Source: Loxodes magnus
Lineage: Eukaryota > Ciliophora > Karyorelictea > Loxodida > Loxodidae
NCBI GenBank assembly: GCA_946699065.1
Contig: CAMPDV010002178.1
Location: 17,960-81,959 of the forward strand
DNA: 64,000 bases
Direction of reading: 5' to 3'
The notes below the pieces were generated by a model that ran no database searches, had not been told where the DNA came from, and worked only from the letters and a program-made list of their open reading frames with translations. This document shows, one piece after another, positions 1,853-51,485 of this stretch; the stretch's first letter is position 1, and every line of letters begins with the position of its first letter. The translations under genes were made by a program, and so were the position numbers.

Positions 1853-1860
1853 ACATTGTT

Positions 1861-18600: not shown

Positions 18601-18605
18601 ATGTA

Positions 18606-19987: not shown

Positions 19988-21240
19988 ACAATGTATGAAA
20001 AATAGTTGAGTGATTTTTAAAGTAAAAAAAAACATTGTTTTAGTTTTGAAGTGAGAATACGAAATTTTAATACCAGAGTGAGTTAACAATGTATGAAAAA
20101 TAGTTGAGTGATTTTTAAAGTAAAAAAAAACATTGTTTTAGTTTTGAAGTGAGAATACTAAATTTTAATACCAGAGTGAGTTAACAATGTATGAAAAATA
20201 GTTGAGTGATTTTTAAAGTAAAAAAAAACATTGTTTTAGTTTTGAAGTGAGAATACTAAATTTTAATACCAGACTGAGTTAACAATGTATGAAAAATAGT
20301 TGAGTGATTTTTAAAGTAAAAAAAAACATTGTTTTAGTTTTGAAGTGAGAATACGAAATTTTAATACCAGAGTGAGTTAACAATGTATGAAAAATAGTTG
20401 AGTGATTTTTAAAGTAAAAAAAAACATTGTTTTAGTTTTGAAGTGAGAATACGAAATTTTAATACCAGAGTGAGTTAACAATGTATGAAAAATAGTTGAG
20501 TGATTTTTAAAGTAAAAAAAAACATTGTTTTAGTTTTGAAGTGAGAATACTAAATTTTAATACCAGAGTGAGTTAACAATGTATGAAAAATAGTTGAGTG
20601 ATTTTTAAAGTAAAAAAAAACATTGTTTTTGATATGTTTTGAAGTGAGAATACTAAATTTTAATACCAGAGTGAGTTAACAATGTATGAAAAATAGTTGA
20701 GTGATTTTTAAAGTAAAAAAAAACATTGTTTTAGTTTTGAAGTGAGAATACGAAATTTTAATACCAGAGTGAGTTAACAATGTATGAAAAATAGTTGAGT
20801 GATTTTTAAAGTAAAAAAAAAGCATTGTTTTAGTTTTGAAGTGAGAATACGAAATTTTAATACCAGACTGAGTTAACAATGTATGAAAAATAGTTGAGTG
20901 ATTTTTAAAGTAAAAAAAACATTGTTTTAGTTTTGAAGTGAGAATACGAAATTTTAATACCAGAGTGAGTTAACAATGTATGAAAAATAGTTGAGTGATT
21001 TTTAAAGTAAAAAAAAACATTGTTTTAGTTTTGAAGTGAGAATACGAAATTTTAATACCAGAGTGAGTTAACAATGTATGAAAAATAGTTGAGTGATTTT
21101 TAAAGTAAAAAAAAACATTGTTTTAGTTTTGAAGTGAGAATACTAAATTTTAATACCAGAGTGAGTTAACAATGTATGAAAAATAGTTGAGTGATTTTTA
21201 AAGTAAAAAAAAACATTGTTTTAGTTTTGAAGTGAGAATA

Positions 21241-21400
21241 CTAAATTTTAATACCAGAGTGATAACAATGTATGAAAAATAGTTGAGTGATTTTTAAAGT
21301 ACATTGTTTTAGTTTTGAAGTGAGAATACTAAATTTTAATACCTGAGTTAACAATGTATGAAAAATAGTTTAGTGATTTTGAAAGTAAAAAAAAGCATTG
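21241..21400 (+). repeat. Cluster of small deletions in three adjacent units
   Basis: Three neighbouring units are shortened. One reads gagtgataacaatg (part of gagtt lost), one has aaagtacattg (the A-run lost), and one has acctgag (a 4 bp deletion). They are followed by a unit with the rare gattttgaaag change and an 8A-gcattg run. The acctgag and gattttgaaag types recur elsewhere in the window, so at least those are inherited variants and not single errors. Confidence 0.8.
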
Positions 21401-24344: not shown

Positions 24345-27300
24345 ATTGTTTTATATGTTTTGAAGTGAGAATACGAAATTCTAATACCAGAGTGAGTTAA
24401 CAATGTATGAAAAATAGTTGAGTGATTTTTAAAGTAAAAAAAAACATTGTTTTTGATATGTTTTGAAGTGAGAATACTAAATTTTAATACCAGAGTGAGT
24501 TAACAATGTATGAAAAATAGTTGAGTGATTTTTAAAGTAAAAAAAAACATTGTTTTAGTTTTGAAGTGAGAAATTAAAATTTTAATACCAGAGTGAGTTA
24601 ACAATGTATGAAAAATAGTTGAGTGATTTTTAAAGTAAAAAAAAACATTGTTTTAGTTTTGAAGTGAGAATACTAAATTTTAATACCAGAGTGAGTTAAC
24701 AATGTATGAAAAATAGTTTAGTGATTTTGAAAGTAAAAAAAAGCATTGTTTTAGTTTTGAAGTGAGAATACTAAATTTTAATACCAGAGTGAGTTAACAA
24801 TGTATGAAAAATAGTTGAGTGATTTTTAAAGTAAAAAAAAACATTGTTTTAGTTTTGAAGTGAGAATACGAAATTTTAATACCAGAGTGAGTTAACAATG
24901 TATGAAAAATAGTTGAGTGATTTTTAAAGTAAAAAAAAACATTGTTTTAGTTTTGAAGTGAGAATACGAAATTTTAATACCAGAGTGAGTTAACAATGTA
25001 TGAAAAATAGTTGAGTGATTTTTAAAGTAAAAAAAAACATTGTTTTAGTTTTGAAGTGAGAATACTAAATTTTAATACCAGAGTGAGTTAACAATGTATG
25101 AAAAATAGTTGAGTGATTTTTAAAGTAAAAAAAAACATTGTTTTAGTTTTGAAGTGAGAATACTAAATTTTAATACCAGAGTGAGTTAACAATGTATGAA
25201 AAATAGTTGAGTGATTTTTAAAGTAAAAAAAAACATTGTTTTAGTTTTGAAGTGAGAATACGAAATTTTAATACCAGAGTGAGTTAACAATGTATGAAAA
25301 ATAGTTGAGTGATTTTTAAAGTAAAAAAAAAGCATTGTTTTAGTTTTGAAGTGAGAATACTAAATTTTAATACCAGAGTGAGTTAACAATGTATGAAAAA
25401 TAGTTGAGTGATTTTTAAAGTAAAAAAAAACATTGTTTTAGTTTTGAAGTGAGAATACTAAATTTTAATACCAGAGTGAGTTAACAATGTATGAAAAATA
25501 GTTGAGTGATTTTTAAAGTAAAAAAAAACATTGTTTTAGTTTTGAAGTGAGAATACGAAATTTTAATACCAGAGTGAGTTAACAATGTATGAAAAATAGT
25601 TGAGTGATTTTTAAAGTAAAAAAAAACATTGTTTTATATGTTTTGAAGTGAGAATACGAAATTCTAATACCAGAGTGAGTTAACAATGTATGAAAAATAG
25701 TTGAGTGATTTTTAAAGTAAAAAAAAACATTGTTTTTGATATGTTTTGAAGTGAGAATACTAAATTTTAATACCAGAGTGAGTTAACAATGTATGAAAAA
25801 TAGTTGAGTGATTTTTAAAGTAAAAAAAAACATTGTTTTAGTTTTGAAGTGAGAAATTAAAATTTTATTACCAGAGTGAGTTAACAATGTATGAAAAATA
25901 GTTGAGTGATTTTTAAAGTAAAAAAAAACATTGTTTTAGTTTTGAAGTGAGAATACGAAATTTTAATACCAGAGTGAGTTAACAATGTATGAAAAATAGT
26001 TGAGTGATTTTTAAAGTAAAAAAAAACATTGTTTTAGTTTTGAAGTGAGAATACGAAATTTTAATACCAGAGTGAGTTAACAATGTATGAAAAATAGTTG
26101 AGTGATTTTTAAAGTAAAAAAAAACATTGTTTTAGTTTTGAAGTGAGAATACTAAATTTTAATACCTGAGTTAACAATGTATGAAAAATAGTTGAGTGAT
26201 TTTTAAAGTAAAAAAAAACATTGTTTTAGTTTTGAAGTGAGAATACTAAATTTTAATACCAGAGTGAGTTAACAATGTATGAAAAATAGTTGAGTGATTT
26301 TTAAAGTAAAAAAAAACATTGTTTTAGTTTTGAAGTGAGAATACTAAATTTTAATACCAGAGTGAGTTAACAATGTATGAAAAATAGTTGAGTGATTTTT
26401 AAAGTAAAAAAAAACATTGTTTTAGTTTTGAAGTGAGAATACTAAATTTTAATACCAGAGTGAGTTAACAATGTATGAAAAATAGTTGAGTGATTTTTAA
26501 AGTAAAAAAAAACATTGTTTTAGTTTTGAAGTGAGAATACTAAATTTTAATACCTGAGTTAACAATGTATGAAAAATAGTTGAGTGATTTTTAAAGTAAA
26601 AAAAAAGCATTGTTTTAGTTTTGAAGTGAGAATACGAAATTTTAATACCAGAGTGAGTTAACAATGTATGAAAAATAGTTGAGTGATTTTTAAAGTAAAA
26701 AAAAACATTGTTTTAGTTTTGAAGTGAGAATACTAAATTTTAATACCAGAGTGAGTAACAATGTATGAAAAATAGTTGAGTGATTTTTAAAGTAAAAAAA
26801 AACATTGTTTTAGTTTTGAAGTGAGAATACGAAATTTTAATACCAGAGTGAGTTAACAATGTATGAAAAATAGTTGAGTGATTTTTAAAGTAAAAAAAAA
26901 CATTGTTTTTGATATGTTTTGAAGTGAGAATACTAAATTTTAATACCAGAGTGAGTTAACAATGTATGAAAAATAGTTGAGTGATTTTTAAAGTAAAAAA
27001 AAACATTGTTTTAGTTTTGAAGTGAGAATACGAAATTTTAATACCAGAGTGAGTTAACAATGTATGAAAAATAGTTTAGTGATTTTGAAAGTAAAAAAAA
27101 GCATTGTTTTAGTTTTGAAGTGAGAATACTAAATTTTAATACCAGAGTGAGTTAACAATGTATGAAAAATAGTTGAGTGATTTTTAAAGTAAAAAAAAAC
27201 ATTGTTTTAGTTTTGAAGTGAGAATACGAAATTTTAATACCAGAGTGAGTTAACAATGTATGAAAAATAGTTGAGTGATTTTTAAAGTAAAAAAAAACAT

Positions 27301-30300
27301 TGTTTTAGTTTTGAAGTGAGAATACGAAATTTTAATACCAGAGTGAGTTAACAATGTATGAAAAATAGTTGAGTGATTTTTAAAGTAAAAAAAAACATTG
27401 TTTTATATGTTTTGAAGTGAGAATACGAAATTCTAATACCAGAGTGAGTTAACAATGTATGAAAAATAGTTGAGTGATTTTTAAAGTAAAAAAAAACATT
27501 GTTTTTGATATGTTTTGAAGTGAGAATACTAAATTTTAATACCAGAGTGAGTTAACAATGTATGAAAAATAGTTGAGTGATTTTTAAAGTAAAAAAAAAC
27601 ATTGTTTTAGTTTTGAAGTGAGAAATTAAAATTTTAATACCAGAGTGAGTTAACAATGTATGAAAAATAGTTGAGTGATTTTTAAAGTAAAAAAAAAGCA
27701 TTGTTTTAGTTTTGAAGTGAGAATACTAAATTTTAATACCAGAGTGAGTTAACAATGTATGAAAAATAGTTGAGTGATTTTTAAAGTAAAAAAAACATTG
27801 TTTTAGTTTTGAAGTGAGAATACGAAATTTTAATACCAGAGTGAGTTAACAATGTATGAAAAATAGTTGAGTGATTTTTAAAGTAAAAAAAAACATTGTT
27901 TTAGTTTTGAAGTGAGAAATTAAAATTTTAATACCAGAGTGAGTTAACAATGTATGAAAAATAGTTGAGTGATTTTTAAAGTAAAAAAAAAGCATTGTTT
28001 TAGTTTTGAAGTGAGAATACTAAATTTTAATACCAGAGTGAGTTAACAATGTATGAAAAATAGTTGAGTGATTTTTAAAGTAAAAAAAAACATTGTTTTA
28101 GTTTTGAAGTGAGAATACGAAATTTTAATACCAGACTGAGTTAACAATGTATGAAAAATAGTTGAGTGATTTTTAAAGTAAAAAAAAACATTGTTTTAGT
28201 TTTGAAGTGAGAATACTAAATTTTAATACCAGAGTGAGTTAACAATGTATGAAAAATAGTTGAGTGATTTTTAAAGTAAAAAAAAACATTGTTTTAGTTT
28301 TGAAGTGAGAATACTAAATTTTAATACCAGAGTGAGTTAACAATGTATGAAAAATAGTTGAGTGATTTTTAAAGTAAAAAAAAACATTGTTTTAGTTTTG
28401 AAGTGAGAATACTAAATTTTAATACCTGAGTTAACAATGTATGAAAAATAGTTTAGTGATTTTGAAAGTAAAAAAAAGCATTGTTTTAGTTTTGAAGTGA
28501 GAATACTAAATTTTAATACCAGAGTGAGTTAACAATGTATGAAAAATAGTTGAGTGATTTTTAAAGTAAAAAAAAACATTGTTTTAGTTTTGAAGTGAGA
28601 ATACGAAATTTTAATACCAGAGTGAGTTAACAATGTATGAAAAATAGTTGAGTGATTTTTAAAGTAAAAAAAACATTGTTTTAGTTTTGAAGTGAGAATA
28701 CGAAATTTTAATACCAGAGTGAGTTAACAATGTATGAAAAATAGTTGAGTGATTTTTAAAGTAAAAAAAAACATTGTTTTAGTTTTGAAGTGAGAATACG
28801 AAATTTTAATACCAGAGTGAGTTAACAATGTATGAAAAATAGTTGAGTGATTTTTAAAGTAAAAAAAAACATTGTTTTAGTTTTGAAGTGAGAATACGAA
28901 ATTTTAATACCAGAGTGAGTTAACAATGTATGAAAAATAGTTGAGTGATTTTTAAAGTAAAAAAAAACATTGTTTTATATGTTTTGAAGTGAGAATACGA
29001 AATTCTAATACCAGAGTGAGTTAACAATGTATGAAAAATAGTTGAGTGATTTTTAAAGTAAAAAAAAACATTGTTTTTGATATGTTTTGAAGTGAGAATA
29101 CTAAATTTTAATACCAGAGTGAGTTAACAATGTATGAAAAATAGTTGAGTGATTTTTAAAGTAAAAAAAAACATTGTTTTAGTTTTGAAGTGAGAAATTA
29201 AAATTTTAATACCAGAGTGAGTTAACAATGTATGAAAAATAGTTGAGTGATTTTTAAAGTAAAAAAAAAGCATTGTTTTAGTTTTGAAGTGAGAATACTA
29301 AATTTTAATACCAGAGTGAGTTAACAATGTATGAAAAATAGTTGAGTGATTTTTAAAGTAAAAAAAACATTGTTTTAGTTTTGAAGTGAGAATACGAAAT
29401 TTTAATACCAGAGTGAGTTAACAATGTATGAAAAATAGTTGAGTGATTTTTAAAGTAAAAAAAAACATTGTTTTAGTTTTGAAGTGAGAATACTAAATTT
29501 TAATACCAGAGTGAGTTAACAATGTATGAAAAATAGTTGAGTGATTTTTAAAGTAAAAAAAAACATTGTTTTAGTTTTGAAGTGAGAATACTAAATTTTA
29601 ATACCAGAGTGAGTTAACAATGTATGAAAAATAGTTGAGTGATTTTTAAAGTAAAAAAAAACATTGTTTTAGTTTTGAAGTGAGAATACGAAATTTTAAT
29701 ACCAGACTGAGTTAACAATGTATGAAAAATAGTTGAGTGATTTTTAAAGTAAAAAAAAACATTGTTTTAGTTTTGAAGTGAGAATACTAAATTTTAATAC
29801 CAGAGTGAGTTAACAATGTATGAAAAATAGTTTAGTGATTTTTAAAGTAAAAAAAAACATTGTTTTAGTTTTGAAGTGAGAATACTAAATTTTAATACCA
29901 GAGTGAGTTAACAATGTATGAAAAATAGTTGAGTGATTTTTAAAGTAAAAAAAAACATTGTTTTAGTTTTGAAGTGAGAATACTAAATTTTAATACCAGA
30001 GTGAGTTAACAATGTATGAAAAATAGTTGAGTGATTTTTAAAGTAAAAAAAAACATTGTTTTAGTTTTGAAGTGAGAATACTAAATTTTAATACCAGAGT
30101 GAGTTAACAATGTATGAAAAATAGTTGAGTGATTTTTAAAGTAAAAAAAAAGCATTGTTTTAGTTTTGAAGTGAGAATACGAAATTTTAATACCAGACTG
30201 AGTTAACAATGTATGAAAAATAGTTGAGTGATTTTTAAAGTAAAAAAAAACATTGTTTTAGTTTTGAAGTGAGAATACTAAATTTTAATACCAGAGTGAG

Positions 30301-31250
30301 TTAACAATGTATGAAAAATAGTTGAGTGATTTTTAAAGTAAAAAAAAACATTGTTTTTGATATGTTTTGAAGTGAGAATACTAAATTTTAATACCAGAGT
30401 GAGTTAACAATGTATGAAAAATAGTTGAGTGATTTTTAAAGTAAAAAAAAACATTGTTTTAGTTTTGAAGTGAGAATACGAAATTTTAATACCAGAGTGA
30501 GTTAACAATGTATGAAAAATAGTTGAGTGATTTTTAAAGTAAAAAAAAAGCATTGTTTTAGTTTTGAAGTGAGAATACTAAATTTTAATACCAGAGTGAG
30601 TTAACAATGTATGAAAAATAGTTGAGTGATTTTTAAAGTAAAAAAAAACATTGTTTTAGTTTTGAAGTGAGAATACGAAATTTTAATACCAGAGTGAGTT
30701 AACAATGTATGAAAAATAGTTGAGTGATTTTTAAAGTAAAAAAAAACATTGTTTTAGTTTTGAAGTGAGAATACGAAATTTTAATACCAGAGTGAGTTAA
30801 CAATGTATGAAAAATAGTTGAGTGATTTTTAAAGTAAAAAAAAACATTGTTTTATATGTTTTGAAGTGAGAATACGAAATTCTAATACCAGAGTGAGTTA
30901 ACAATGTATGAAAAATAGTTGAGTGATTTTTAAAGTAAAAAAAAACATTGTTTTTGATATGTTTTGAAGTGAGAATACTAAATTTTAATACCAGAGTGAG
31001 TTAACAATGTATGAAAAATAGTTGAGTGATTTTTAAAGTAAAAAAAAACATTGTTTTAGTTTTGAAGTGAGAAATTAAAATTTTAATACCAGAGTGAGTT
31101 AACAATGTATGAAAAATAGTTGAGTGATTTTTAAAGTAAAAAAAAACATTGTTTTAGTTTTGAAGTGAGAATACTAAATTTTAATACCAGAGTGAGTTAA
31201 CAATGTATGAAAAATAGTTGAGTGATTTTTAAAGTAAAAAAAACATTGTT
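24345..31250 (+). repeat. Higher-order repeat family marked by an attctaat unit
   Basis: A distinctive trio of units occurs five times: an atatg unit carrying a T-to-C change (attctaat), then a gatatg/act unit, then an aaatt unit. The changed C lies at 24,381, 25,664, 27,433, 29,005 and 30,882, giving intervals of 1,283, 1,769, 1,572 and 1,877 bp. In the copies from 27.4 kb on, an act unit (with a 9A-g run in the copies at 27.4 and 29.0 kb) and an 8A-run acg unit follow the trio. Unequal intervals show insertion or loss of whole units between copies. The marker is absent from the rest of the window. Confidence 0.87.
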
Positions 31251-33290
31251 TTAGTTTTGAAGTGAGAATACGAAATTTTAATACCAGAGTGAGTTAACAA
31301 TGTATGAAAAATAGTTGAGTGATTTTTAAAGTAAAAAAAAACATTGTTTTAGTTTTGAAGTGAGAATACGAAATTTTAATACCAGAGTGAGTTAACAATG
31401 TATGAAAAATAGTTGAGTGATTTTTAAAGTAAAAAAAAACATTGTTTTAGTTTTGAAGTGAGAATACGAAATTTTAATACCAGAGTGAGTTAACAATGTA
31501 TGAAAAATAGTTGAGTGATTTTTAAAGTAAAAAAAAACATTGTTTTAGTTTTGAAGTGAGAATACGAAATTTTAATACCAGACTGAGTTAACAATGTATG
31601 AAAAATAGTTGAGTGATTTTTAAAGTAAAAAAAAACATTGTTTTAGTTTTGAAGTGAGAATACGAAATTTTAATACCAGAGTGAGTTAACAATGTATGAA
31701 AAATAGTTGAGTGATTTTTAAAGTAAAAAAAAACATTGTTTTAGTTTTGAAGTGAGAATACTAAATTTTAATACCAGAGTGAGTTAACAATGTATGAAAA
31801 ATAGTTGAGTGATTTTTAAAGTAAAAAAAAACATTGTTTTAGTTTTGAAGTGAGAATACTAAATTTTAATACCTGAGTTAACAATGTATGAAAAATAGTT
31901 TAGTGATTTTGAAAGTAAAAAAAAGCATTGTTTTAGTTTTGAAGTGAGAATACTAAATTTTAATACCAGAGTGAGTTAACAATGTATGAAAAATAGTTGA
32001 GTGATTTTTAAAGTAAAAAAAAACATTGTTTTAGTTTTGAAGTGAGAAATTAAAATTTTAATACCAGAGTGAGTTAACAATGTATGAAAAATAGTTGAGT
32101 GATTTTTAAAGTAAAAAAAAAGCATTGTTTTAGTTTTGAAGTGAGAATACTAAATTTTAATACCAGAGTGAGTTAACAATGTATGAAAAATAGTTGAGTG
32201 ATTTTTAAAGTAAAAAAAAACATTGTTTTAGTTTTGAAGTGAGAATACGAAATTTTAATACCAGAGTGAGTTAACAATGTATGAAAAATAGTTGAGTGAT
32301 TTTTAAAGTAAAAAAAACATTGTTTTAGTTTTGAAGTGAGAAATTAAAATTTTAATACCAGAGTGAGTTAACAATGTATGAAAAATAGTTGAGTGATTTT
32401 TAAAGTAAAAAAAAACATTGTTTTAGTTTTGAAGTGAGAATACTAAATTTTAATACCAGAGTGAGTTAACAATGTATGAAAAATAGTTGAGTGATTTTTA
32501 AAGTAAAAAAAAACATTGTTTTAGTTTTGAAGTGAGAATACTAAATTTTAATACCAGAGTGAGTTAACAATGTATGAAAAATAGTTGAGTGATTTTTAAA
32601 GTAAAAAAAAACATTGTTTTAGTTTTGAAGTGAGAAATTAAAATTTTAATACCAGAGTGAGTTAACAATGTATGAAAAATAGTTGAGTGATTTTTAAAGT
32701 AAAAAAAAACATTGTTTTAGTTTTGAAGTGAGAAATTAAAATTTTAATACCAGAGTGAGTTAACAATGTATGAAAAAATGTTGAGTGATTTTTAAAGTAA
32801 AAAAAAACATTGTTTTAGTTTTGAAGTGAGAAATTAAAATTTTAATACCAGAGTGAGTTAACAATGTATGAAAAAAAGTTGAGTGATTTTTAAAGTAAAA
32901 AAAAAGTTTGTTTTAGTTTTGAAGTGAGAATACGAAATTTTAATACCAGAGTGAGTTAACAATGTATGAAAAATAGTTGAGTGATTTTTAAAGTAAAAAA
33001 AAACATTGTTTTAGTTTTGAAGTGAGAATACGAAATTTTAATACCAGAGTGAGTTAACAATGTATGAAAAATAGTTGAGTGATTTTTAAAGTAAAAAAAA
33101 GCATTGTTTTAGTTTTGAAGTGAGAATACGAAATTTTAATACCAGAGTGAGTTAACAATGTATGAAAAATAGTTGAGTGATTTTTAAAGTAAAAAAAAGC
33201 ATTGTTTTAGTTTTGAAGTGAGAATACTAAATTTTAATACCAGAGTGAGTTAACAATGTATGAAAAATAGTTGAGTGATTTTTAAAGTAA

Positions 33291-35516
33291 AAAAAAAGCA
33301 GTTTTTGAGAATACTAATTTTAATACCTGAGTTAACAATTTGAGTTGAGTGATTTTTAAAGATTGTTTTAAATGAGAATAAAATTTTAATACCAGAGTGA
33401 GTTAACAATGTATGAAAAATAGTTGAGTGATTTTTAAAGTAAAAAAACATTGTTTTAGTTTTTGAGAAATTAAAATTTTAATACCAGAGTGAGTTAACAA
33501 TTATGAAGTGAGATTTTTAAAGTAAAAAAAAACATTGTTTTAGTTTGAAGTGAAATTTTAATACCAGAGTGAGTTAACAATGTATGAAAAATAGTTGAGT
33601 GATTTTTAAAGTAAAAAAAAACATTGTTTTTATGTTTTGAAGTGAGAATACGAAATTTTAATACCAGAGTGAGTTAACAATGTATGAAAAATAGTTGAGT
33701 GATTTTTAAAGTAAAAAAAAACATTGTTTTAGTTTTGAAGTGAGAATACTAAATTTTTAATACCAGAGTGAGTTAACAATGTATGAAAAATAGTTGAGTG
33801 ATTTTTTAAAGTAAAAAAAAACATTGTTTTAGTTTTGAAGTGAGAATACGAAATTTTAATACCAGAGTGAGTTAACAATGTATGAAAAATAGTTGAGTGA
33901 TTTTTAAAGTAAAAAAAAACATTGTTTTAGTTTTGAAGTGAGAATACTAAATTTTAATACCAGAGTGAGTTAACAATGTATGAAAAATATGTTGAGTGAT
34001 TTTTAAAGTAAAAAAAAACATTGTTTTAGTTTTGAAGTGAGAAATAAAATTTTAATACCAGAGTGAGTTAACAATGTATGAAAAATAGTTGAGTGATTTT
34101 TAAAGTAAAAAAAAAGTTTTTTTGATAGTTTTGAAGTGAGAATACGAAATTTTAATACCAGAGTGAGTTAACAATGTATGAAAAATAGTTGAGTGATTTT
34201 TAAAGTAAAAAAAAAAACATTGTTTTAGTTTTGAAGTGAGAATACGAAATTTTAATACCAGAATGAGTTAACAATGTATGAAAAATAGTTGAGTGATTTT
34301 TAAAGTAAAAAAAACATTGTTTTGATGTGTTTTGAAGTGAGAATACGAAATTTTAATACCAGAGTGAGTTAACAATGTATGAAAAATAGTTGAGTGATTT
34401 TTAAAGTAAAAAAAAAGCATTGTTTTAGTTTTGAAGTGAGAATACTAAATTTTAATACCAGAGTGAGTTAACAATGTATGAAAAATAGTTGAGTGATTTT
34501 TAAAGTAAAAAAAAACATTGTTTTAGTTTTGAAGTGAGAATACTAAATTTTAATACCAGAGTGAGTTAACAATGTATGAAAAATAGTTGAGTGATTTTTA
34601 AAGTAAAAAAAAAAGTTTGTTTTAGTTTTGAAGTGAGAATACGAAATTTTAATACCAGAGTGAGTTAACAATGTATGAAAAATAGTTGAGTGATTTTTAA
34701 GTAAAAAAAAACATTGTTTTAGTTTTGAAGTGAGAATACGAAATTTTAATACCAGAGTGAGTTAACAATGTATGAAAAATAGTTGAGATTTTTGATTTTG
34801 ATAAAGTGAAAAAAAAATACCATAACAATGTATTTTGTGTAATTTTTAAGTAAAAAAAAACATAGTTTTGAAGTGAGAATACTAAATTTTAATACCAGAG
34901 TGAGTTAACAATGTATGAAAAATAGTTGAGTGATTTTTAAAGTAAAAAAAAACATTGTTTTAGTTTTGAAGTGAGAAATTAAAATTTTAATACCAGAGTG
35001 AGTTAACAATGTATGAAAAATAGTTGAGTGATTTTTTAAAGTAAAAAAAAAGCATTGTTTTAGTTTTGAAGTGAGAATACTAAATTTTAATACCAGAGTG
35101 AGTTAACAATGTATGAAAAATAGTTGAGTGATTTTTAAAGTAAAAAAAACATTGTTTTAGTTTTGAAGTGAGAAATTAAAAATTTTAATACCAGAGTAGT
35201 TTATGAAGTGATTTTTAAAGTAAAAAAAAACATTGTTTTTGATACGAAGTGAGAAATTTTAATACCAGAGTGAGTTAACAATGTATGAAAAATAGTTGAG
35301 TGATTTTTAAAGTAAAAAAAAACATTGTTTTAGTTTTGAAGTGAGAATACGAAATTTTAATACCAGAGTGAGTTAACAATGTATGAAAAAATAGTTGAGT
35401 GATTTTTAAAGTAAAAAAAAAACATTGTTTTAGTTTTGAAGTGAGAATACGAAATTTTAATACCAGAGTGAGTTAACAATGTATGAAAAAATTTGAGTGA
35501 TTTTTTAAAGTAAAAA
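33291..35516 (+). repeat. Degraded satellite segment, left arm of a palindrome
   Basis: Forward units continue but are damaged in nearly every repeat. Examples are acctgag joined to gttaacaatttgag near 33,330, a missing A-run near 33,360, an 11-A run near 34,207, and heavily scrambled units at 34,780-34,850 and 35,190-35,250. Reading backward from 35,516, the unit types match those of the opposite-strand array reading forward from 35,517. Shared rare markers are a cgaagtg remnant at 35,245, tgtgtaattttt at 34,836, gatgtg at 34,324, gaatgag at 34,261, a long A-run at 34,207 and acctgag at 33,327. The damage lies almost entirely on this arm, which suggests a low-accuracy copy of the other arm. 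Confidence 0.85.
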
Positions 35517-35545
35517 CAATGTTTTTTTTTACTTTAAAAATCACT
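35500..35545. other. Inverted junction 1 (forward to reverse units)
   Basis: The forward unit stops in its A-run (ttaaagtaaaaa, ending 35,516). The next bases, caatg followed by nine T and actttaaaaa, belong to the opposite strand. The two sides are inverted copies separated by fewer than about ten bases, so the single strand could fold into a hairpin with a very small loop. No foreign sequence is present at the join. Confidence 0.93.
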
Positions 35546-36309
35546 CAACTATTTTTCATACATTGTTAACTCACTCTGGTATTAAAATTTCGTATTCTCA
35601 CTTCAAAACTAAAACAATGTTTTTTTTTACTTTAAAAATCACTCAACTATTTTTCATACATTGTTAACTCACTCTGGTATTAAAATTTAGTATTCTCACT
35701 TCAAAACTAAAACAATGTTTTTTTTTACTTTAAAAATCACTCAACTATTTTTCATACATTGTTAACTCACTCTGGTATTAAAATTTAGTATTCTCACTTC
35801 GAAACATATCAAAAACAATGTTTTTTTTTACTTTAAAAATCACTCAACTATTTTTCATACATTGTTAACTCACTCTGGTATTAAAATTTTAATTTCTCAC
35901 TTCAAAACTAAAACAATGTTTTTTTTTACTTTAAAAATCACTCAACTATTTTTCATACATTGTTAACTCACTCTGGTATTAAAATTTAGTATTCTCACTT
36001 CAAAACTAAAACAATGTTTTTTTTTACTTTAAAAATCACTCAACTATTTTTCATACATTGTTAACTCACTCTGGTATTAAAATTTTAATTTCTCACTTCA
36101 AAACTAAAACAATGTTTTTTTTTACTTTAAAAATCACTCAACTATTTTTCATACATTGTTAACTCACTCTGGTATTAAAATTTCGTATTCTCACTTCAAA
36201 ACTAAAACAATGTTTTTTTTTACTTAAAAATTACACAACTATTTTTCATACATTGTTAACTCACTCTGGTATTAAAATTTCGTATTCTCACTTCAAAACA
36301 TATCAAAAA

Positions 36310-37140
36310 CAATGTTTTTTTTTACTTTAAAAATCACTCAACTATTTTTCATACATTGTTAACTCACTCTGGTATTAAAATTTCGTATTCTCACTTCAAA
36401 ACTAAAACAATGTTTTTTTTTACTTTAAAAATCACTCAACTATTTTTCATACATTGTTAACTCACTCTGGTATTAAAATTTAGTATTCTCACTTCAAAAC
36501 TAAAACAATGTTTTTTTTTACTTTAAAAATCACTCAACTATTTTTCATACATTGTTAACTCACTCTGGTATTAAAATTTCGTATTCTCACTTCAAAACTA
36601 AAACAATGTTTTTTTTTACTTAAAAATTACACAACTATTTTTCATACATTGTTAACTCACTCTGGTATTAAAATTTAGTATTCTCACTTCAAAACTAAAA
36701 CAATGTTTTTTTTTACTTTAAAAATCACTCAACTATTTTTCATACATTGTTAACTCACTCTGGTATTAAAATTTCGTATTCTCACTTCAAAACACATCAA
36801 AAACAATGTTTTTTTTTACTTTAAAAATCACTCAACTATTTTTCATACATTGTTAACTCATTCTGGTATTAAAATTTCGTATTCTCACTTCAAAACTAAA
36901 ACAATGTTTTTTTTTTACTTTAAAAATCACTCAACTATTTTTCATACATTGTTAACTCACTCTGGTATTAAAATTTCGTATTCTCACTTCAAAACATATC
37001 AAAAACAATGTTTTTTTTTACTTTAAAAATCACTCAACTATTTTTCATACATTGTTAACTCACTCTGGTATTAAAATTTCGTATTCTCACTTCAAAACTA
37101 AAACAATGTTTTTTTTTACTTTAAAAATCACTCAACTATT
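36310..37140 (-). repeat. Block duplicated at +5,312 bp (copy 1)
   Basis: The attacacaac unit at 36,627, the gatgtg unit (reverse cacatc) at 36,793, the cattctgg unit at 36,859 and the ten-T unit after it recur in order at 41,622-42,452 with a 5,312 bp offset. The gatgtg, cattctgg and ten-T trio also occurs at 40,131-40,250, which is 3,338 bp after the first and 1,974 bp before the third. There are therefore three copies of this short series in the inverted array, plus its degraded mirror image at 34.2-34.35 kb. Confidence 0.85.
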
Positions 37141-37844
37141 TTTCATACATTGTTAACTCACTCTGGTATTAAAATTTAGTATTCTCACTTCAAAACTAAA
37201 ACAATGTTTTTTTTTACTTTAAAAATCACTCAACTATTTTTCATACATTGTTAACTCACTCTGGTATTAAAATTTCGTATTCTCACTTCAAAACTAAAAC
37301 AATGTTTTTTTTTACTTTAAAAATCACTCAACTATTTTTCATACATTGTTAACTCACTCTGGTATTAAAATTTAGTATTCTCACTTCAAAACTAAAACAA
37401 TGTTTTTTTTTACTTTAAAAATCACTCAACTATTTTTCATACATTGTTAACTCACTCTGGTATTAAAATTTCGTATTCTCACTTCAAAACTAAAACAATG
37501 TTTTTTTTTACTTTAAAAATCACTCAACTATTTTTCATACATTGTTAACTCACTCTGGTATTAAAATTTTAATTTATCACTTCAAAACTAAAACAATGTT
37601 TTTTTTTACTTTAAAAATCACTCAACTATTTTTCATACATTGTTAACTCACTCTGGTATTAAAATTTTAATTTCTCACTTCAAAACTAAAACAATGTTTT
37701 TTTTTACTTTAAAAATCACTCAACTATTTTTCATACATTGTTAACTCACTCTGGTATTAAAATTTCGTATTCTCACTTCAAAACTAAAACAATGTTTTTT
37801 TTTACTTTAAAAATCACTCAACTATTTTTCATACATTGTTAACT

Positions 37845-38835
37845 CAGGTATTAAAATTTAGTATTCTCACTTCAAAACTAAAACAATGCTTTTTTTTTAC
37901 TTTAAAAATCACTCAACTATTTTTCATACATTGTTAACTCACTCTGGTATTAAAATTTCGTATTCTCACTTCAAAACTAAAACAATGCTTTTTTTTACTT
38001 TAAAAATCACTCAACTATTTTTCATACATTGTTAACTCACTCTGGTATTAAAATTTCGTATTCTCACTTCAAAACTAAAACAATGTTTTTTTTTACTTTA
38101 AAAATCACTCAACTATTTTTCATACATTGTTAACTCACTCTGGTATTAAAATTTAGTATTCTCACTTCAAAACTAAAACAATGTTTTTTTTTACTTTAAA
38201 AATCACTCAACTATTTTTCATACATTGTTAACTCACTCTGGTATTAAAATTTAGTATTCTCACTTCAAAACTAAAACAATGCTTTTTTTTTACTTTAAAA
38301 ATCACTCAACTATTTTTCATACATTGTTAACTCACTCTGGTATTAAAATTTCGTATTCTCACTTCAAAACTAAAACAATGTTTTTTTTTACTTTAAAAAT
38401 CACTCAACTATTTTTCATACTTTGTTAACTCATTCTGGTATTAAAATTTCGTATTCTCACTTCAAAACTAAAACAATGTTTTTTTTTACTTTAAAAATCA
38501 CTCAACTATTTTTCATACATTGTTAACTCACTCTGGTATTAAAATTTAGTATTCTCACTTCAAAACTAAAACAATGCTTTTTTTTTACTTTAAAAATCAC
38601 TCAACTATTTTTCATACATTGTTAACTCACTCTGGTATTAAAATTTCGTATTCTCACTTCAAAACTAAAACAATGTTTTTTTTTACTTTAAAAATCACTC
38701 AACTATTTTTCATACATTGTTAACTCACTCTGGTATTAAAATTTCGTATTCTCACTTAAACTAAAACAAACTTTTTTTTTACTTTAAAAATCACTCAACT
38801 ATTTTTCATACATTGTTAACTCACTCTGGTATTAA
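37845..38835 (-). repeat. Block duplicated at +4,922 bp (copy 1)
   Basis: Matches 42,766-43,757. Shared markers are the 4 bp deletion (ctcaggta), a unit with actttgttaactcattc (38,421 to 43,343), and the cttaaac/caaac unit (38,755 to 43,677). The offset changes from 4,921 to 4,922 bp because one T-run differs by a base. The next unit differs between copies: the later one has a catatc insertion. Confidence 0.85.
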
Positions 38836-41621
38836 AATTTAGTATTCTCACTTCAAAACTAAAACAATGTTTTTTTTTACTTTAAAAATCACTCAACTAT
38901 TTTTCATACATTGTTAACTCACTCTGGTATTAAAATTTCGTATTCTCACTTCAAAACTAAAACAATGTTTTTTTTTACTTTAAAAATCACTCAACTATTT
39001 TTCATACATTGTTAACTCACTCTGGTATTAAAATTTCGTATTCTCACTTCAAAACTAAAACAATGCTTTTTTTTTACTTTAAAAATCACTCAACTATTTT
39101 TCATACATTGTTAACTCACTCTGGTATTAAAATTTTAATTTCTCACTTCAAAACTAAAACAATGTTTTTTTTTACTTTAAAAATCACTCAACTATTTTTC
39201 ATACATTGTTAACTCACTCTGGTATTAAAATTTCGTATTCTCACTTCAAAACTAAAACAATGTTTTTTTTTACTTTAAAAATCACTCAACTATTTTTCAT
39301 ACATTGTTAACTCACTCTGGTATTAAAATTTAGTATTCTCACTTCAAAACTAAAACAATGTTTTTTTTTACTTTAAAAATCACTCAACTATTTTTCATAC
39401 ATTGTTAACTCACTCTGGTATTAAAATTTCGTATTCTCACTTCAAAACTAAAACAATGCTTTTTTTTTACTTTAAAAATCACTCAACTATTTTTCATACA
39501 TTGTTAACTCACTCTGGTATTAAAATTTCGTATTCTCACTTCAAAACTAAAACAATGTTTTTTTTTACTTTAAAAATCACTCAACTATTTTTCATACATT
39601 GTTAACTCACTCTGGTATTAAAATTTAGTATTCTCACTTCAAAACTAAAACAATGTTTTTTTTTACTTTAAAAATCACTCAACTATTTTTCATACATTGT
39701 TAACTCACTCTGGTATTAAAATTTCGTATTCTCACTTCAAAACTAAAACAATGTTTTTTTTTACTTTAAAAATCACTCAACTATTTTTCATACATTGTTA
39801 ACTCACTCTGGTATTAAAATTTAGTATTCTCACTTCAAAACTAAAACAATGTTTTTTTTTACTTTAAAAATCACTCAACTATTTTTCATACATTGTTAAC
39901 TCACTCTGGTATTAAAATTTCGTATTCTCACTTCAAAACTAAAACAATGTTTTTTTTTACTTAAAAATTACACAACTATTTTTCATACATTGTTAACTCA
40001 GGTATTAAAATTTAGTATTCTCACTTCAAAACTAAAACAATGCTTTTTTTTTACTTTAAAAATCACTCAACTATTTTTCATACATTGTTAACTCACTCTG
40101 GTATTAAAATTTCGTATTCTCACTTCAAAACACATCAAAAACAATGTTTTTTTTTACTTTAAAAATCACTCAACTATTTTTCATACATTGTTAACTCATT
40201 CTGGTATTAAAATTTCGTATTCTCACTTCAAAACTAAAACAATGTTTTTTTTTTACTTTAAAAATCACTCAACTATTTTTCATACATTGTTAACTCACTC
40301 TGGTATTAAAATTTCGTATTCTCACTTCAAAACATATCAAAAACAATGTTTTTTTTTACTTTAAAAATCACTCAACTATTTTTCATACATTGTTAACTCA
40401 CTCTGGTATTAAAATTTCGTATTCTCACTTCAAAACTAAAACAATGTTTTTTTTTACTTTAAAAATCACTCAACTATTTTTCATACATTGTTAACTCACT
40501 CTGGTATTAAAATTTAGTATTCTCACTTCAAAACTAAAACAATGTTTTTTTTTACTTTAAAAATCACTCAACTATTTTTCATACATTGTTAACTCACTCT
40601 GGTATTAAAATTTCGTATTCTCACTTCAAAACTAAAACAATGTTTTTTTTTACTTTAAAAATCACTCAACTATTTTTCATACATTGTTAACTCACTCTGG
40701 TATTAAAATTTTAATTTCTCACTTCAAAACTAAAACAATGTTTTTTTTTACTTTAAAAATCACTCAACTATTTTTCATACATTGTTAACTCACTCTGGTA
40801 TTAAAATTTTAATTTCTCACTTCAAAACTAAAACAATGTTTTTTTTTACTTTAAAAATCACTCAACTATTTTTCATACATTGTTAACTCACTCTGGTATT
40901 AAAATTTAGTATTCTCACTTCAAAACTAAAACAATGCTTTTTTTTTACTTTAAAAATCACTCAACTATTTTTCATACATTGTTAACTCACTCTGGTATTA
41001 AAATTTCGTATTCTCACTTCAAAACTAAAACAATGTTTTTTTTTACTTTAAAAATCACTCAACTATTTTTCATACATTGTTAACTCACTCTGGTATTAAA
41101 ATTTCGTATTCTCACTTAAACTAAAACAAACTTTTTTTTTACTTTAAAAATCACTCAACTATTTTTCATACATTGTTAACTCACTCTGGTATTAAAATTT
41201 AGTATTTTCACTTCAAAACATATCAAAAACAATGTTTTTTTTTACTTTAAAAATCACTCAACTATTTTTCATACATTGTTAACTCACTCTGGTATTAAAA
41301 TTTAGTATTCTCACTTCAAAACTAAAACAATGTTTTTTTTTACTTTAAAAATCACTCAACTATTTTTCATACATTGTTAACTCACTCTGGTATTAAAATT
41401 TCGTATTCTCACTTCAAAACTAAAACAATGTTTTTTTTTACTTTAAAAATCACTCAACTATTTTTCATACATTGTTAACTCACTCTGGTATTAAAATTTC
41501 GTATTCTCACTTCAAAACTAAAACAATGTTTTTTTTTACTTTAAAAATCACTCAACTATTTTTCATACATTGTTAACTCACTCTGGTATTAAAATTTAGT
41601 ATTCTCACTTCAAAACTAAAA

Positions 41622-42452
41622 CAATGTTTTTTTTTACTTTAAAAATCACTCAACTATTTTTCATACATTGTTAACTCACTCTGGTATTAAAATTTCGTAT
41701 TCTCACTTCAAAACTAAAACAATGTTTTTTTTTACTTTAAAAATCACTCAACTATTTTTCATACATTGTTAACTCACTCTGGTATTAAAATTTAGTATTC
41801 TCACTTCAAAACTAAAACAATGTTTTTTTTTACTTTAAAAATCACTCAACTATTTTTCATACATTGTTAACTCACTCTGGTATTAAAATTTCGTATTCTC
41901 ACTTCAAAACTAAAACAATGTTTTTTTTTACTTAAAAATTACACAACTATTTTTCATACATTGTTAACTCACTCTGGTATTAAAATTTAGTATTCTCACT
42001 TCAAAACTAAAACAATGTTTTTTTTTACTTTAAAAATCACTCAACTATTTTTCATACATTGTTAACTCACTCTGGTATTAAAATTTCGTATTCTCACTTC
42101 AAAACACATCAAAAACAATGTTTTTTTTTACTTTAAAAATCACTCAACTATTTTTCATACATTGTTAACTCATTCTGGTATTAAAATTTCGTATTCTCAC
42201 TTCAAAACTAAAACAATGTTTTTTTTTTACTTTAAAAATCACTCAACTATTTTTCATACATTGTTAACTCACTCTGGTATTAAAATTTCGTATTCTCACT
42301 TCAAAACATATCAAAAACAATGTTTTTTTTTACTTTAAAAATCACTCAACTATTTTTCATACATTGTTAACTCACTCTGGTATTAAAATTTCGTATTCTC
42401 ACTTCAAAACTAAAACAATGTTTTTTTTTACTTTAAAAATCACTCAACTATT
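41622..42452 (-). repeat. Block copy of 36,310-37,140
   Basis: Unit order matches 36,310-37,140 at +5,312 bp: attacacaac at 41,939, cacatc at 42,105, cattctgg at 42,171. The match fails upstream of about 41,620, where a catatc unit is missing, and downstream of about 42,450, where aaatt-type units replace an act unit. Confidence 0.83.
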
Positions 42453-42765
42453 TTTCATACATTGTTAACTCACTCTGGTATTAAAATTTTAATTTCTCAC
42501 TTCAAAACTAAAACAATGTTTTTTTTTACTTTAAAAATCACTCAACTATTTTTCATACATTGTTAACTCACTCTGGTATTAAAATTTTAATTTCTCACTT
42601 CAAAACTAAAACAATGTTTTTTTTTACTTTAAAAATCACTCAACTATTTTTCATACATTGTTAACTCACTCTGGTATTAAAATTTCGTATTCTCACTTCA
42701 AAACTAAAACAATGCTTTTTTTTTACTTTAAAAATCACTCAACTATTTTTCATACATTGTTAACT

Positions 42766-43757
42766 CAGGTATTAAAATTTAGTATTCTCACTTCAAAACT
42801 AAAACAATGCTTTTTTTTTACTTTAAAAATCACTCAACTATTTTTCATACATTGTTAACTCACTCTGGTATTAAAATTTCGTATTCTCACTTCAAAACTA
42901 AAACAATGCTTTTTTTTTACTTTAAAAATCACTCAACTATTTTTCATACATTGTTAACTCACTCTGGTATTAAAATTTCGTATTCTCACTTCAAAACTAA
43001 AACAATGTTTTTTTTTACTTTAAAAATCACTCAACTATTTTTCATACATTGTTAACTCACTCTGGTATTAAAATTTAGTATTCTCACTTCAAAACTAAAA
43101 CAATGTTTTTTTTTACTTTAAAAATCACTCAACTATTTTTCATACATTGTTAACTCACTCTGGTATTAAAATTTAGTATTCTCACTTCAAAACTAAAACA
43201 ATGCTTTTTTTTTACTTTAAAAATCACTCAACTATTTTTCATACATTGTTAACTCACTCTGGTATTAAAATTTCGTATTCTCACTTCAAAACTAAAACAA
43301 TGTTTTTTTTTACTTTAAAAATCACTCAACTATTTTTCATACTTTGTTAACTCATTCTGGTATTAAAATTTCGTATTCTCACTTCAAAACTAAAACAATG
43401 TTTTTTTTTACTTTAAAAATCACTCAACTATTTTTCATACATTGTTAACTCACTCTGGTATTAAAATTTAGTATTCTCACTTCAAAACTAAAACAATGCT
43501 TTTTTTTTACTTTAAAAATCACTCAACTATTTTTCATACATTGTTAACTCACTCTGGTATTAAAATTTCGTATTCTCACTTCAAAACTAAAACAATGTTT
43601 TTTTTTACTTTAAAAATCACTCAACTATTTTTCATACATTGTTAACTCACTCTGGTATTAAAATTTCGTATTCTCACTTAAACTAAAACAAACTTTTTTT
43701 TTACTTTAAAAATCACTCAACTATTTTTCATACATTGTTAACTCACTCTGGTATTAA
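42766..43757 (-). repeat. Block copy of 37,845-38,835
   Basis: Second copy of the block described at 37,845-38,835. The cttaaac unit followed by an agtattttcac/catatc unit at its right edge recurs at about 41,105-41,225, 44,165-44,280 and 48,110-48,230. In the reverse sense the same pair is found in the forward array at 52,441-52,560 and 53,131-53,250. Confidence 0.83.
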
Positions 43758-46389
43758 AATTTAGTATTTTCACTTCAAAACATATCAAAAACAATGTTTT
43801 TTTTTACTTTAAAAATCACTCAACTATTTTTCATACATTGTTAACTCACTCTGGTATTAAAATTTAGTATTCTCACTTCAAAACTAAAACAATGTTTTTT
43901 TTTACTTTAAAAATCACTCAACTATTTTTCATACATTGTTAACTCACTCTGGTATTAAAATTTAGTATTCTCACTTCAAAACTAAAACAATGCTTTTTTT
44001 TTACTTTAAAAATCACTCAACTATTTTTCATACATTGTTAACTCACTCTGGTATTAAAATTTCGTATTCTCACTTCAAAACTAAAACAATGTTTTTTTTT
44101 ACTTTAAAAATCACTCAACTATTTTTCATACATTGTTAACTCACTCTGGTATTAAAATTTCGTATTCTCACTTAAACTAAAACAAACTTTTTTTTTACTT
44201 TAAAAATCACTCAACTATTTTTCATACATTGTTAACTCACTCTGGTATTAAAATTTAGTATTTTCACTTCAAAACATATCAAAAACAATGTTTTTTTTTA
44301 CTTTAAAAATCACTCAACTATTTTTCATACATTGTTAACTCACTCTGGTATTAAAATTTAGTATTCTCACTTCAAAACTAAAACAATGTTTTTTTTTACT
44401 TTAAAAATCACTCAACTATTTTTCATACATTGTTAACTCACTCTGGTATTAAAATTTCGTATTCTCACTTCAAAACTAAAACAATGCTTTTTTTTTACTT
44501 TAAAAATCACTCAACTATTTTTCATACATTGTTAACTCACTCTGGTATTAAAATTTCGTATTCTCACTTCAAAACTAAAACAATGTTTTTTTTTACTTTA
44601 AAAATCACTCAACTATTTTTCATACATTGTTAACTCACTCTGGTATTAAAATTTAGTATTCTCACTTCAAAACTAAAACAATGTTTTTTTTTACTTTAAA
44701 AATCACTCAACTATTTTTCATACATTGTTAACTCACTCTGGTATTAAAATTTAGTATTCTCACTTCAAAACTAAAACAATGTTTTTTTTTACTTTAAAAA
44801 TCACTCAACTATTTTTCATACATTGTTAACTCACTCTGGTATTAAAATTTAGTATTCTCACTTCAAAACTAAAACAATGCTTTTTTTTTACTTTAAAAAT
44901 CACTCAACTATTTTTCATACATTGTTAACTCACTCTGGTATTAAAATTTCGTATTCTCACTTCAAAACTAAAACAATGTTTTTTTTTACTTTAAAAATCA
45001 CTCAACTATTTTTCATACATTGTTAACTCACTCTGGTATTAAAATTTCGTATTCTCACTTCAAAACATATCAAAAACAATGCTTTTTTTTACTTTAAAAA
45101 TCACTCAACTATTTTTCATACATTGTTAACTCACTCTGGTATTAAAATTTCGTATTCTCACTTCGAAACATATCAAAAACAATGTTTTTTTTTACTTTAA
45201 AAATCACTCAACTATTTTTCATACATTGTTAACTCACTCTGGTATTAAAATTTTAATTTCTCACTTCAAAACTAAAACAATGTTTTTTTTTACTTTAAAA
45301 ATCACTCAACTATTTTTCATACATTGTTAACTCACTCTGGTATTAAAATTTAGTATTCTCACTTCAAAACTAAAACAATGTTTTTTTTTACTTTAAAAAT
45401 CACTCAACTATTTTTCATACATTGTTAACTCACTCTGGTATTAAAATTTCGTATTCTCACTTCAAAACTAAAACAATGTTTTTTTTTACTTTAAAAATCA
45501 CTCAACTATTTTTCATACATTGTTAACTCACTCTGGTATTAAAATTTTAATTTCTCACTTCAAAACTAAAACAATGTTTTTTTTTACTTTAAAAATCACT
45601 CAACTATTTTTCATACATTGTTAACTCACTCTGGTATTAAAATTTAGTATTCTCACTTCAAAACTAAAACAATGCTTTTTTTTTACTTTAAAAATCACTC
45701 AACTATTTTTCATACATTGTTAACTCACTCTGGTATTAAAATTTCGTATTCTCACTTCAAAACTAAAACAATGTTTTTTTTTACTTTAAAAATCACTCAA
45801 CTATTTTTCATACATTGTTAACTCACTCTGGTATTAAAATTTAGTATTCTCACTTCAAAACTAAAACAATGTTTTTTTTTACTTTAAAAATCACTCAACT
45901 ATTTTTCATACATTGTTAACTCACTCTGGTATTAAAATTTAGTATTCTCACTTCAAAACTAAAACAATGTTTTTTTTTACTTTAAAAATCACTCAACTAT
46001 TTTTCATACATTGTTAACTCACTCTGGTATTAAAATTTAGTATTCTCACTTCAAAACTAAAACAATGTTTTTTTTTACTTTAAAAATCACTCAACTATTT
46101 TTCATACATTGTTAACTCACTCTGGTATTAAAATTTAGTATTCTCACTTCAAAACTAAAACAATGTTTTTTTTTACTTTAAAAATCACTCAACTATTTTT
46201 CATACATTGTTAACTCACTCTGGTATTAAAATTTAGTATTCTCACTTCAAAACTAAAACAATGTTTTTTTTTACTTTAAAAATCACTCAACTATTTTTCA
46301 TACATTGTTAACTCACTCTGGTATTAAAATTTAGTATTCTCACTTCAAAACTAAAACAATGTTTTTTTTTACTTTAAAAATCACTCAAC

Positions 46390-46900
46390 TATTTTTCATA
46401 CATTGTTAACTCACTCTGGTATTAAAATTTAGTATTCTCACTTCAAAACTAAAACAATGTTTTTTTTTACTTTAAAAATCACTCAACTATTTTTCATACA
46501 TTGTTAACTCACTCTGGTATTAAAATTTCGTATTTTCACTTCAAAACTAAAACAATGTTTTTTTTTACTTTAAAAATCACTCAACTATTTTTCATACATT
46601 GTTAACTCACTCTGGTATTAAAATTTCGTATTCTCACTTCAAAACTAAAACAATGTTTTTTTTTACTTTAAAAATCACTCAACTATTTTTCATACATTGT
46701 TAACTCACTCTGGTATTAAAATTTCGTATTCTCACTTCGAAACATATCAAAAACAATGTTTTTTTTTACTTTAAAAATCACTCAACTATTTTTCATACAT
46801 TGTTAACTCACTCTGGTATTAAAATTTAGTATTCTCACTTCAAAACTAAAACAATGTTTTTTTTTACTTTAAAAATCACTCAACTATTTTTCATACATTG
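46390..46900 (-). repeat. Block duplicated at +2,067 bp
   Basis: A unit with cgtattttcac (46,529 to 48,596) followed two units later by a cttcgaaacatatc unit (46,735 to 48,802) recurs at exactly 2,067 bp. Both copies are preceded by a run of plain act-type units (46.0-46.44 kb and 48.3-48.5 kb), so the true duplication may be longer than the marked part. Confidence 0.8.
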
Positions 46901-48959
46901 TTAACTCACTCTGGTATTAAAATTTCGTATTCTCACTTCAAAACTAAAACAATGTTTTTTTTTACTTTAAAAATCACTCAACTATTTTTCATACATTGTT
47001 AACTCAGGTATTAAAATTTTAATTTCTCACTTCAAAACTAAAACAATGTTTTTTTTTACTTTAAAAATCACTCAACTATTTTTCATACATTGTTAACTCA
47101 CTCTGGTATTAAAATTTAGTATTCTCACTTCAAAACTAAAACAATGTTTTTTTTTACTTTAAAAATCACTCAACTATTTTTCATACATTGTTAACTCACT
47201 CTGGTATTAAAATTTAGTATTCTCACTTCAAAACTAAAACAATGCTTTTTTTTTACTTTAAAAATCACTCAACTATTTTTCATACATTGTTAACTCACTC
47301 TGGTATTAAAATTTCGTATTCTCACTTCAAAACTAAAACAATGCTTTTTTTTTACTTTAAAAATCACTCAACTATTTTTCATACATTGTTAACTCACTCT
47401 GGTATTAAAATTTAGTATTCTCACTTCAAAACTAAAACAATGTTTTTTTTTTACTTTAAAAATCACTCAACTATTTTTCATACATTGTTAACTCACTCTG
47501 GTATTAAAATTTCGTATTCTCACTTCAAAACTAAAACAATGCTTTTTTTTTACTTTAAAAATCACTCAACTATTTTTCATACATTGTTAACTCACTCTGG
47601 TATTAAAATTTTAATTTCTCACTTCAAAACTAAAACAATGTTTTTTTTTACTTTAAAAATCACTCAACTATTTTTCATACATTGTTAACTCACTCTGGTA
47701 TTAAAATTTAGTATTCTCACTTCAAAACTAAAACAATGCTTTTTTTTTACTTTAAAAATCACTCAACTATTTTTCATACATTGTTAACTCACTCTGGTAT
47801 TAAAATTTCGTATTCTCACTTCAAAACTAAAACAATGTTTTTTTTTACTTTAAAAATCACTCAACTATTTTTCATACATTGTTAACTCACTCTGGTATTA
47901 AAATTTAGTATTCTCACTTCAAAACTAAAACAATGTTTTTTTTTACTTTAAAAATCACTCAACTATTTTTCATACATTGTTAACTCACTCTGGTATTAAA
48001 ATTTCGTATTCTCACTTCAAAACTAAAACAATGTTTTTTTTTACTTTAAAAATCACTCAACTATTTTTCATACATTGTTAACTCACTCTGGTATTAAAAT
48101 TTCGTATTCTCACTTAAACTAAAACAAACTTTTTTTTTACTTTAAAAATCACTCAACTATTTTTCATACATTGTTAACTCACTCTGGTATTAAAATTTAG
48201 TATTTTCACTTCAAAACATATCAAAAACAATGTTTTTTTTTACTTTAAAAATCACTCAACTATTTTTCATACATTGTTAACTCACTCTGGTATTAAAATT
48301 TAGTATTCTCACTTCAAAACTAAAACAATGTTTTTTTTTACTTTAAAAATCACTCAACTATTTTTCATACATTGTTAACTCACTCTGGTATTAAAATTTA
48401 GTATTCTCACTTCAAAACTAAAACAATGTTTTTTTTTACTTTAAAAATCACTCAACTATTTTTCATACATTGTTAACTCACTCTGGTATTAAAATTTAGT
48501 ATTCTCACTTCAAAACTAAAACAATGTTTTTTTTTACTTTAAAAATCACTCAACTATTTTTCATACATTGTTAACTCACTCTGGTATTAAAATTTCGTAT
48601 TTTCACTTCAAAACTAAAACAATGTTTTTTTTTACTTTAAAAATCACTCAACTATTTTTCATACATTGTTAACTCACTCTGGTATTAAAATTTCGTATTC
48701 TCACTTCAAAACTAAAACAATGTTTTTTTTTACTTTAAAAATCACTCAACTATTTTTCATACATTGTTAACTCACTCTGGTATTAAAATTTCGTATTCTC
48801 ACTTCGAAACATATCAAAAACAATGTTTTTTTTTACTTTAAAAATCACTCAACTATTTTTCATACATTGTTAACTCACTCTGGTATTAAAATTTAGTATT
48901 CTCACTTCAAAACTAAAACAATGTTTTTTTTTACTTTAAAAATCACTCAACTATTTTTC

Positions 48960-51400: not shown

Positions 51401-51485
51401 ACTCAACTATTTTTCATACATTGTTAACTCACTCTGGTATTAAAATTTAGTATTCTCACTTCAAAACATATCAAAAACAATGTTT

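What the first reader, a model, noticed from the sequence alone, without database searches (positions are those of the whole stretch)
33291..37890. Fold-back palindrome with one intact and one decayed arm
Typing units outward from 35,516 gives nearly the same series on both sides for about 24 units. Right arm, reverse sense: acg, act, tttcga/gatatg, aaatt, act, aaatt, then tgtgtaattttt, later gatgtg, gaatgag, a long homopolymer, gatatg, and finally acctgag next to a 9A-g unit. The left arm has the same rare markers at corresponding distances (35,245; 34,836; 34,324; 34,261; 34,207; about 34,125; 33,327). The left arm is riddled with indels while the right arm is clean. A read that folds back onto its own complementary strand with poor second-strand accuracy would give exactly this. 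A true palindrome whose arm decayed should show substitutions and damage on both arms. Mirror matching stops near 33.29 kb, where clean left-array units begin.
Basis: partly seen in the sequence, partly recalled or inferred. Interest (0 to 1): 0.8.

Follow-up and report, generated by a model that had tools for sequence, protein, structure and literature searches.

The report
Fold-back artefact in satellite DNA array
A long stretch of simple repeated DNA appears to double back on itself, but the damaged half of the loop looks more like an uncorrected copy made during sequencing and assembly than a real part of the chromosome.

Summary
The window is one AT-rich 98-bp satellite array, part of contig C2178 of a 705.7-Mb genome. 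Orientation flips at 35,516 and 51,518. The fold-back at 35,516 is really in the sequence: left arm 33,301-35,516 mirrors right arm 35,526-37,886. In 600-bp pieces the mirror register ranks 1 or 2 of 153 in all 8 pieces touching the arm; the next six rank 84, 120, 34, 3, 7, 140. Damage is one-sided and deletion-rich: 42 deletions (162 b), 16 insertions (17 b), 10 substitutions.

Best reading: a fold-back read was built into the assembly. Support: 8 patterns found 25 short-spacer flips of this satellite in 24 contigs, this one included; contig C3995 mirrors itself for 17 kb. Against: the same noise occurs in a direct repeat (2,959-3,143), so poor second-strand reading is not needed; C5899 and 51,518 flip without mirroring; a cruder register test did not favour the mirror here. 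Raw reads were not available.

The parts
1..33290 (+). Forward 98-bp satellite array, clean apart from a few spots (for example 1,792-1,875 and 2,936-3,167)
33291..35516 (+). Damaged left arm of the fold-back: same satellite, deletion-rich, mirror of the right arm
35507..35534 (.). Turn: A-run of a forward unit meets CAATG of a reverse unit; 9-nt spacer between perfect arms
35517..37890 (-). Clean right arm of the fold-back, start of the reverse array
37891..51518 (-). Rest of the reverse satellite array
51496..51541 (.). Second flip (back to forward), short-spacer palindromic junction, arms not mirrored
51519..64000 (+). Forward satellite array to the end of the contig

Best explanation
The palindrome is most likely an artefact: a hairpin (fold-back) DNA molecule, sequenced as one long read, was built into the assembly. 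SHOWN: the left arm mirrors the right arm for about 2.2 kb; only the left arm is heavily damaged, mainly by missing bases; mirror and damage end together near 33.29 kb; the turn lies where each monomer carries A9-CATTG-TTTT. INFERRED: a strand ending ...AAAAAAAAACATTGTTTT folded back so that its T's paired with its own A-run, and the end was extended or joined. The first arm read copies genuine array (35,517 onward), which other reads cover, so its consensus is clean. The second arm exists in no chromosome, so no other reads corrected it; nanopore signal loss on the second strand may have added damage. The read ended near 33.29 kb, where satellite similarity let the assembler join another forward array.
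For: Mirror register and its sharp end; one-sided deletion-rich damage, the pattern described for second arms in nanopore reads (PMC7229812); fold-back reads arise in library preparation at about 0.55-0.6% of ONT genomic reads (PMC12870357). Same assembly: C3995 turns at the same monomer position and mirrors itself for 17 kb; of 7 further flips fetched, 4 have mirror-specific arms (L042, L045, L046, L047). Noise stops where the array is still the same satellite, and two unmirrored flips, 51,518 and C5899, show no comparable noise at the turn in what I looked at (for 51,518; C5899 by reading only).
Against: No raw reads or coverage. The sequencing technology is unknown to me; fold-backs were virtually absent from HiFi data in PMC12870357. 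The same noise occurs in a direct repeat. Of the 7 fetched flips, L041 and L044 are uninformative and L043 does not favour the mirror. C5899 turns at the same monomer position without mirrored arms, so that site can flip without a fold-back. The block test did not favour the mirror at 35,516. Four unit states and one marker disagree between the arms. 90 of the 579 unique left-arm 25-mers occur in other fetched loci.
Confidence: 0.7

Rival explanations
1. A real, recent inverted duplication of about 2.2 kb (or a real orientation switch made by snap-back or template switching at the A-run), whose left arm is poorly sequenced because few reads, all from the right, cover it.
For: Orientation flips of this satellite are numerous (25 places from 8 patterns). 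The same monomer position flips in C5899 without mirrored arms. Real macro-dyad symmetries are reported in Tribolium satellites (PMC13081366, passages). One-arm noise next to inverted duplications is a known nanopore effect (PMC7229812).
Against: Noise and mirror end together at about 33.29 kb although the satellite goes on; the left arm should also be read cleanly from the other side. The junctions are varied rather than one conserved inversion site.
Confidence: 0.17
2. The stretch 33,291-35,516 is a raw read filling a gap between two arrays, and its mirror likeness is only ordinary satellite similarity.
For: Noise lies between two clean stretches and satellite units are alike in any register; the block test did not favour the mirror.
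Against: Mirror register first of 521, and first or second of 153 in 8 of 8 pieces, with rare markers in the same order.
Confidence: 0.08
3. An old genomic palindrome in which one arm has truly decayed by mutation.
For: The arms are alike and one is damaged; array homogenisation could have kept the other arm like its neighbours.
Against: Damage is mostly short deletions with few substitutions, confined to the mirrored stretch. Neutral decay should give many substitutions and no sharp edge (general knowledge).
Confidence: 0.04

Closest known systems
Fold-back artefact reads in long-read libraries (PMC12870357, parts 1-3 of 5 read)
   Same: A sequence followed at once by its own reverse complement, with a short spacer and no adapter
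   Different: Here it is seen in an assembled contig inside a satellite; the read itself was not available
Low-accuracy second arm at inverted duplicates in nanopore reads (PMC7229812; abstract, results and discussion read)
   Same: One arm normal, the other shorter and rich in missed bases
   Different: Reported for single reads with quality scores and current traces; here only a consensus is seen, and similar noise occurs in a direct repeat
Macro-dyad symmetries of Tribolium satellite DNA (PMC13081366, passages read)
   Same: Satellite of about 100-bp units in kilobase subarrays of opposite orientation
   Different: There inversion sites are highly conserved in thousands of copies and were checked on raw reads; the junctions found here are few and varied, and one arm is damaged

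Membership tests
Fold-back read artefact | Second part is the reverse complement of the first, in register from the turn | tested here: met
   the block test disagrees
Fold-back read artefact | Turn near the middle of the read, supported by palindromic reads only | not testable with these tools
   No raw reads held
Nanopore second-arm quality loss | Arm after the junction shorter and rich in missed bases | tested here: met
   162 b deleted against 17 b inserted in the left arm
Nanopore second-arm quality loss | Such noise is tied to inverted sequence | tested here: not met
   The same kind of noise lies in a direct repeat at 2,959-3,143
Macro-dyad symmetry of satellite arrays | Long subarrays of opposite orientation | tested here: met
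   Flips at 35,516 and 51,518
Macro-dyad symmetry of satellite arrays | Conserved inversion site in many copies | tested here: not met
   3 places at the A-run site and 22 at other monomer positions with differing spacers, from 8 exact patterns that cover only part of the monomer
Macro-dyad symmetry of satellite arrays | Present in raw reads | not testable with these tools
   No raw reads held

The most novel reading that the evidence does not exclude
The flips are real: this satellite keeps folding back on itself in the living genome wherever its monomer can form a small hairpin (A9-CATTG-TTTT, TAT-GAAAA-ATA, AAATTT), making private, freshly mirrored palindromes up to 17 kb long, of which the window holds one.
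Probability: 0.17. Interest if true: 0.6.

Novelty: not a real feature. Interest (0 to 1): 0.22.

Why it matters
Satellite arrays hold little unique sequence to expose a false turn, so fold-back reads can pass into assemblies and be taken for inverted repeats or for centromere architecture. Comparing the unit order of the two arms register by register separates mirrored flips (this site, C3995) from unmirrored ones (51,518; C5899). If the flips proved real, the satellite would be a natural system for watching fold-back rearrangement.

Tried and rejected
Rfam: nothing at gathering score in 30,000-40,000. Exact monomer stretches: none in genome contigs or, with another stretch, in viral contigs; blastn of 36,000-37,000 against plasmids: none; the calls warn that near records may be left out. 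Five monomer strings were not found in the paper library. One search found no paper; of the listings I opened only the three papers cited.

That 51,518 is also a fold-back: rejected, its mirror register is below average. Whether the 51,518 junction recurs elsewhere was not learned: searches did not complete, and the broader pattern (0 places) does not match 51,518 itself.

That one whole arm of C3995 is the noisy one: not borne out. Of 219 differences, 92 could not be given to a side; the rest lie on the left arm near the turn and on the right arm beyond about 8-10 kb, which would fit reads being shared unevenly between two copies (inference).

Position of the turn within the contig (11 junctions, 0.06 to 0.85 of contig length): mixed, not used.

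First version of the register test on the 7 fetched flips compared unequal lengths; I repeated it with equal blocks and use that: 4 clear, 2 uninformative, 1 against.

Full report
WHAT THE WINDOW IS. The window is one AT-rich satellite with a 98-bp monomer (GC about 0.23). It is contig C2178:17,960-81,959 of a genome of 705,730,643 bases in 7,843 contigs. The contig ends where the window ends, and its first 17,959 bases are the same satellite. No call names the organism or the sequencing technology. Orientation is forward from 1 to 35,516, reverse from 35,517 to 51,518, forward again to 64,000.

THE OBSERVATION. The left arm outward from 35,516 aligns with the right arm from 35,526 to 37,886 with 10 substitutions, 42 left-arm deletions (162 bases) and 16 left-arm insertions (17 bases) (three substitutions beyond 33.3 kb are left out). 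Since any two satellite stretches align well, I tested the register. The mirror register scored highest of 521. In half-overlapping 600-bp pieces it ranked 1,1,1,2,1,1,1,2 among 153 registers from 35,516 out to 32,817, then 84,120,34,3,7,140 along the continuation of the same path, which serves as a control. Local alignment over 2 kb put the mirror first of 7 registers. One test disagreed: on blocks of 10 detected units the mirror penalty was 129 against 122.5 one unit over. I give this test less weight because its unit finder skips damaged left-arm units (merged units), but I report it. Four acg/act states and one tgtgtaa marker are not mirrored. Damage is one-sided: 21 of 52 runs of window-unique 25-mers fall in 33,277-35,534; 579 of 2,202 left-arm 25-mers are unique in the contig, against 36 of 2,350 on the right arm and 648 of 59,352 in the rest of the window; 90 of the 579 occur in 185,017 bases of other fetched loci, some of them overlapping.

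THE TURN. At 35,516 an A-run of a forward unit meets CAATG of a reverse unit, with a 9-nt spacer between perfect arms. Each monomer holds A9-CATTG-TTTT, which can pair with itself, weakly when alone (-1.6 kcal/mol with DNA parameters). That a strand end folded back there is inferred.

OTHER TURNS IN THE SAME GENOME. A gapped pattern for this junction finds three places: this one, C3995 and C5899. C3995 (36,329 bp) turns at 19,289; its arms align over 17 kb with 0-3 substitutions per kb and 219 differences, of which 68 of the 70 printed are single-base. Its mirror penalty is 52 against 198 or more for shifts. C5899 turns at the same monomer position, but its arms are not mirrored. Seven further patterns found 0, 0, 11, 0, 2, 5 and 4 places: 25 places in 24 contigs from 8 exact patterns, which cover only part of the monomer. 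I saw both orientations in sequence for this site, C3995, C5899 and 7 of the 11 places; the other 15 rest on the pattern match alone. Of the 7, the mirror register is clearly best in L042, L045, L046 and L047, uninformative in L041 and L044, and not best in L043. Spacers of the 19 junctions examined, 51,518 included, are 0-11 nt; two of them (C3302, C3481) have only short inner stems. The flip at 51,518 is not mirrored.

NOISE WITHOUT A FOLD-BACK. Window 1,852-4,396 is identical to 4,322-6,967 in direct orientation except for a deletion-rich spot at 2,959-3,143; an extra 48-base piece lies at 1,804-1,851. So deletion-rich noise in this contig marks uncorrected tracts and need not come from second-strand reading.

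INTERPRETATION. The most economical account is a fold-back molecule read once: its first arm coincides with genuine array and is corrected by other reads; its second arm has no counterpart and stays raw; the read ends near 33.29 kb and is joined to another forward array by similarity. If the noise came only from hairpin re-annealing at a real inverted repeat, it should go on beyond 33.29 kb, where the satellite is still complementary to the middle array, and appear at 51,518. It does neither. A real palindrome covered by few reads from one side is not excluded.

LITERATURE. PMC7229812 (abstract, results, discussion) describes low-quality, shorter second arms after inverted-duplicate junctions in nanopore reads. 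PMC12870357 (parts 1-3 of 5) gives fold-back rates of about 0.55-0.6% in ONT genomic reads and virtually none in HiFi, favours library preparation as the source, and saw no notable signal change at breakpoints in eight reads, which does not support second-arm signal loss as a general rule. PMC13081366 (passages) reports macro-dyad symmetries in Tribolium satellites with conserved inversion sites checked on raw HiFi reads; the varied junctions here do not show that conservation.

VERDICT. The artefact reading is best supported but not proved. Interest is low, except as a warning and a simple test for satellite assemblies.

Noticed in passing
window 51,518 (51,496-51,541): Second orientation flip with a short-spacer palindromic junction and no mirrored arms; a better candidate for a real orientation switch than 35,516.
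   Followed up: partly
window 1,804-4,396 against 4,322-6,967: A 2.5-kb direct copy, identical except for a deletion-rich noisy spot at 2,959-3,143 and an extra 48 bases just before it: another clean/noisy pair of copies.
   Followed up: yes
C3995 (L020-L023), turn at 19,289: Whole 36.3-kb contig is nearly one palindrome (17-kb mirrored arms), turning at the same monomer position as the window.
   Followed up: partly
C5899 (L038-L040), turn near 12,502: Orientation flip at the same monomer position, but with arms of different unit types.
   Followed up: partly
24 contigs of G000: 25 short-spacer flip junctions of this satellite family at several monomer positions; only some were fetched.
   Followed up: partly
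window 35,517-64,000: Middle and right arrays share recurring unit orders (for example a GATATG unit followed by a TAAGTG/GTTTG unit), hinting at a common higher-order pattern across the 51,518 flip (symbol strings).
   Followed up: no
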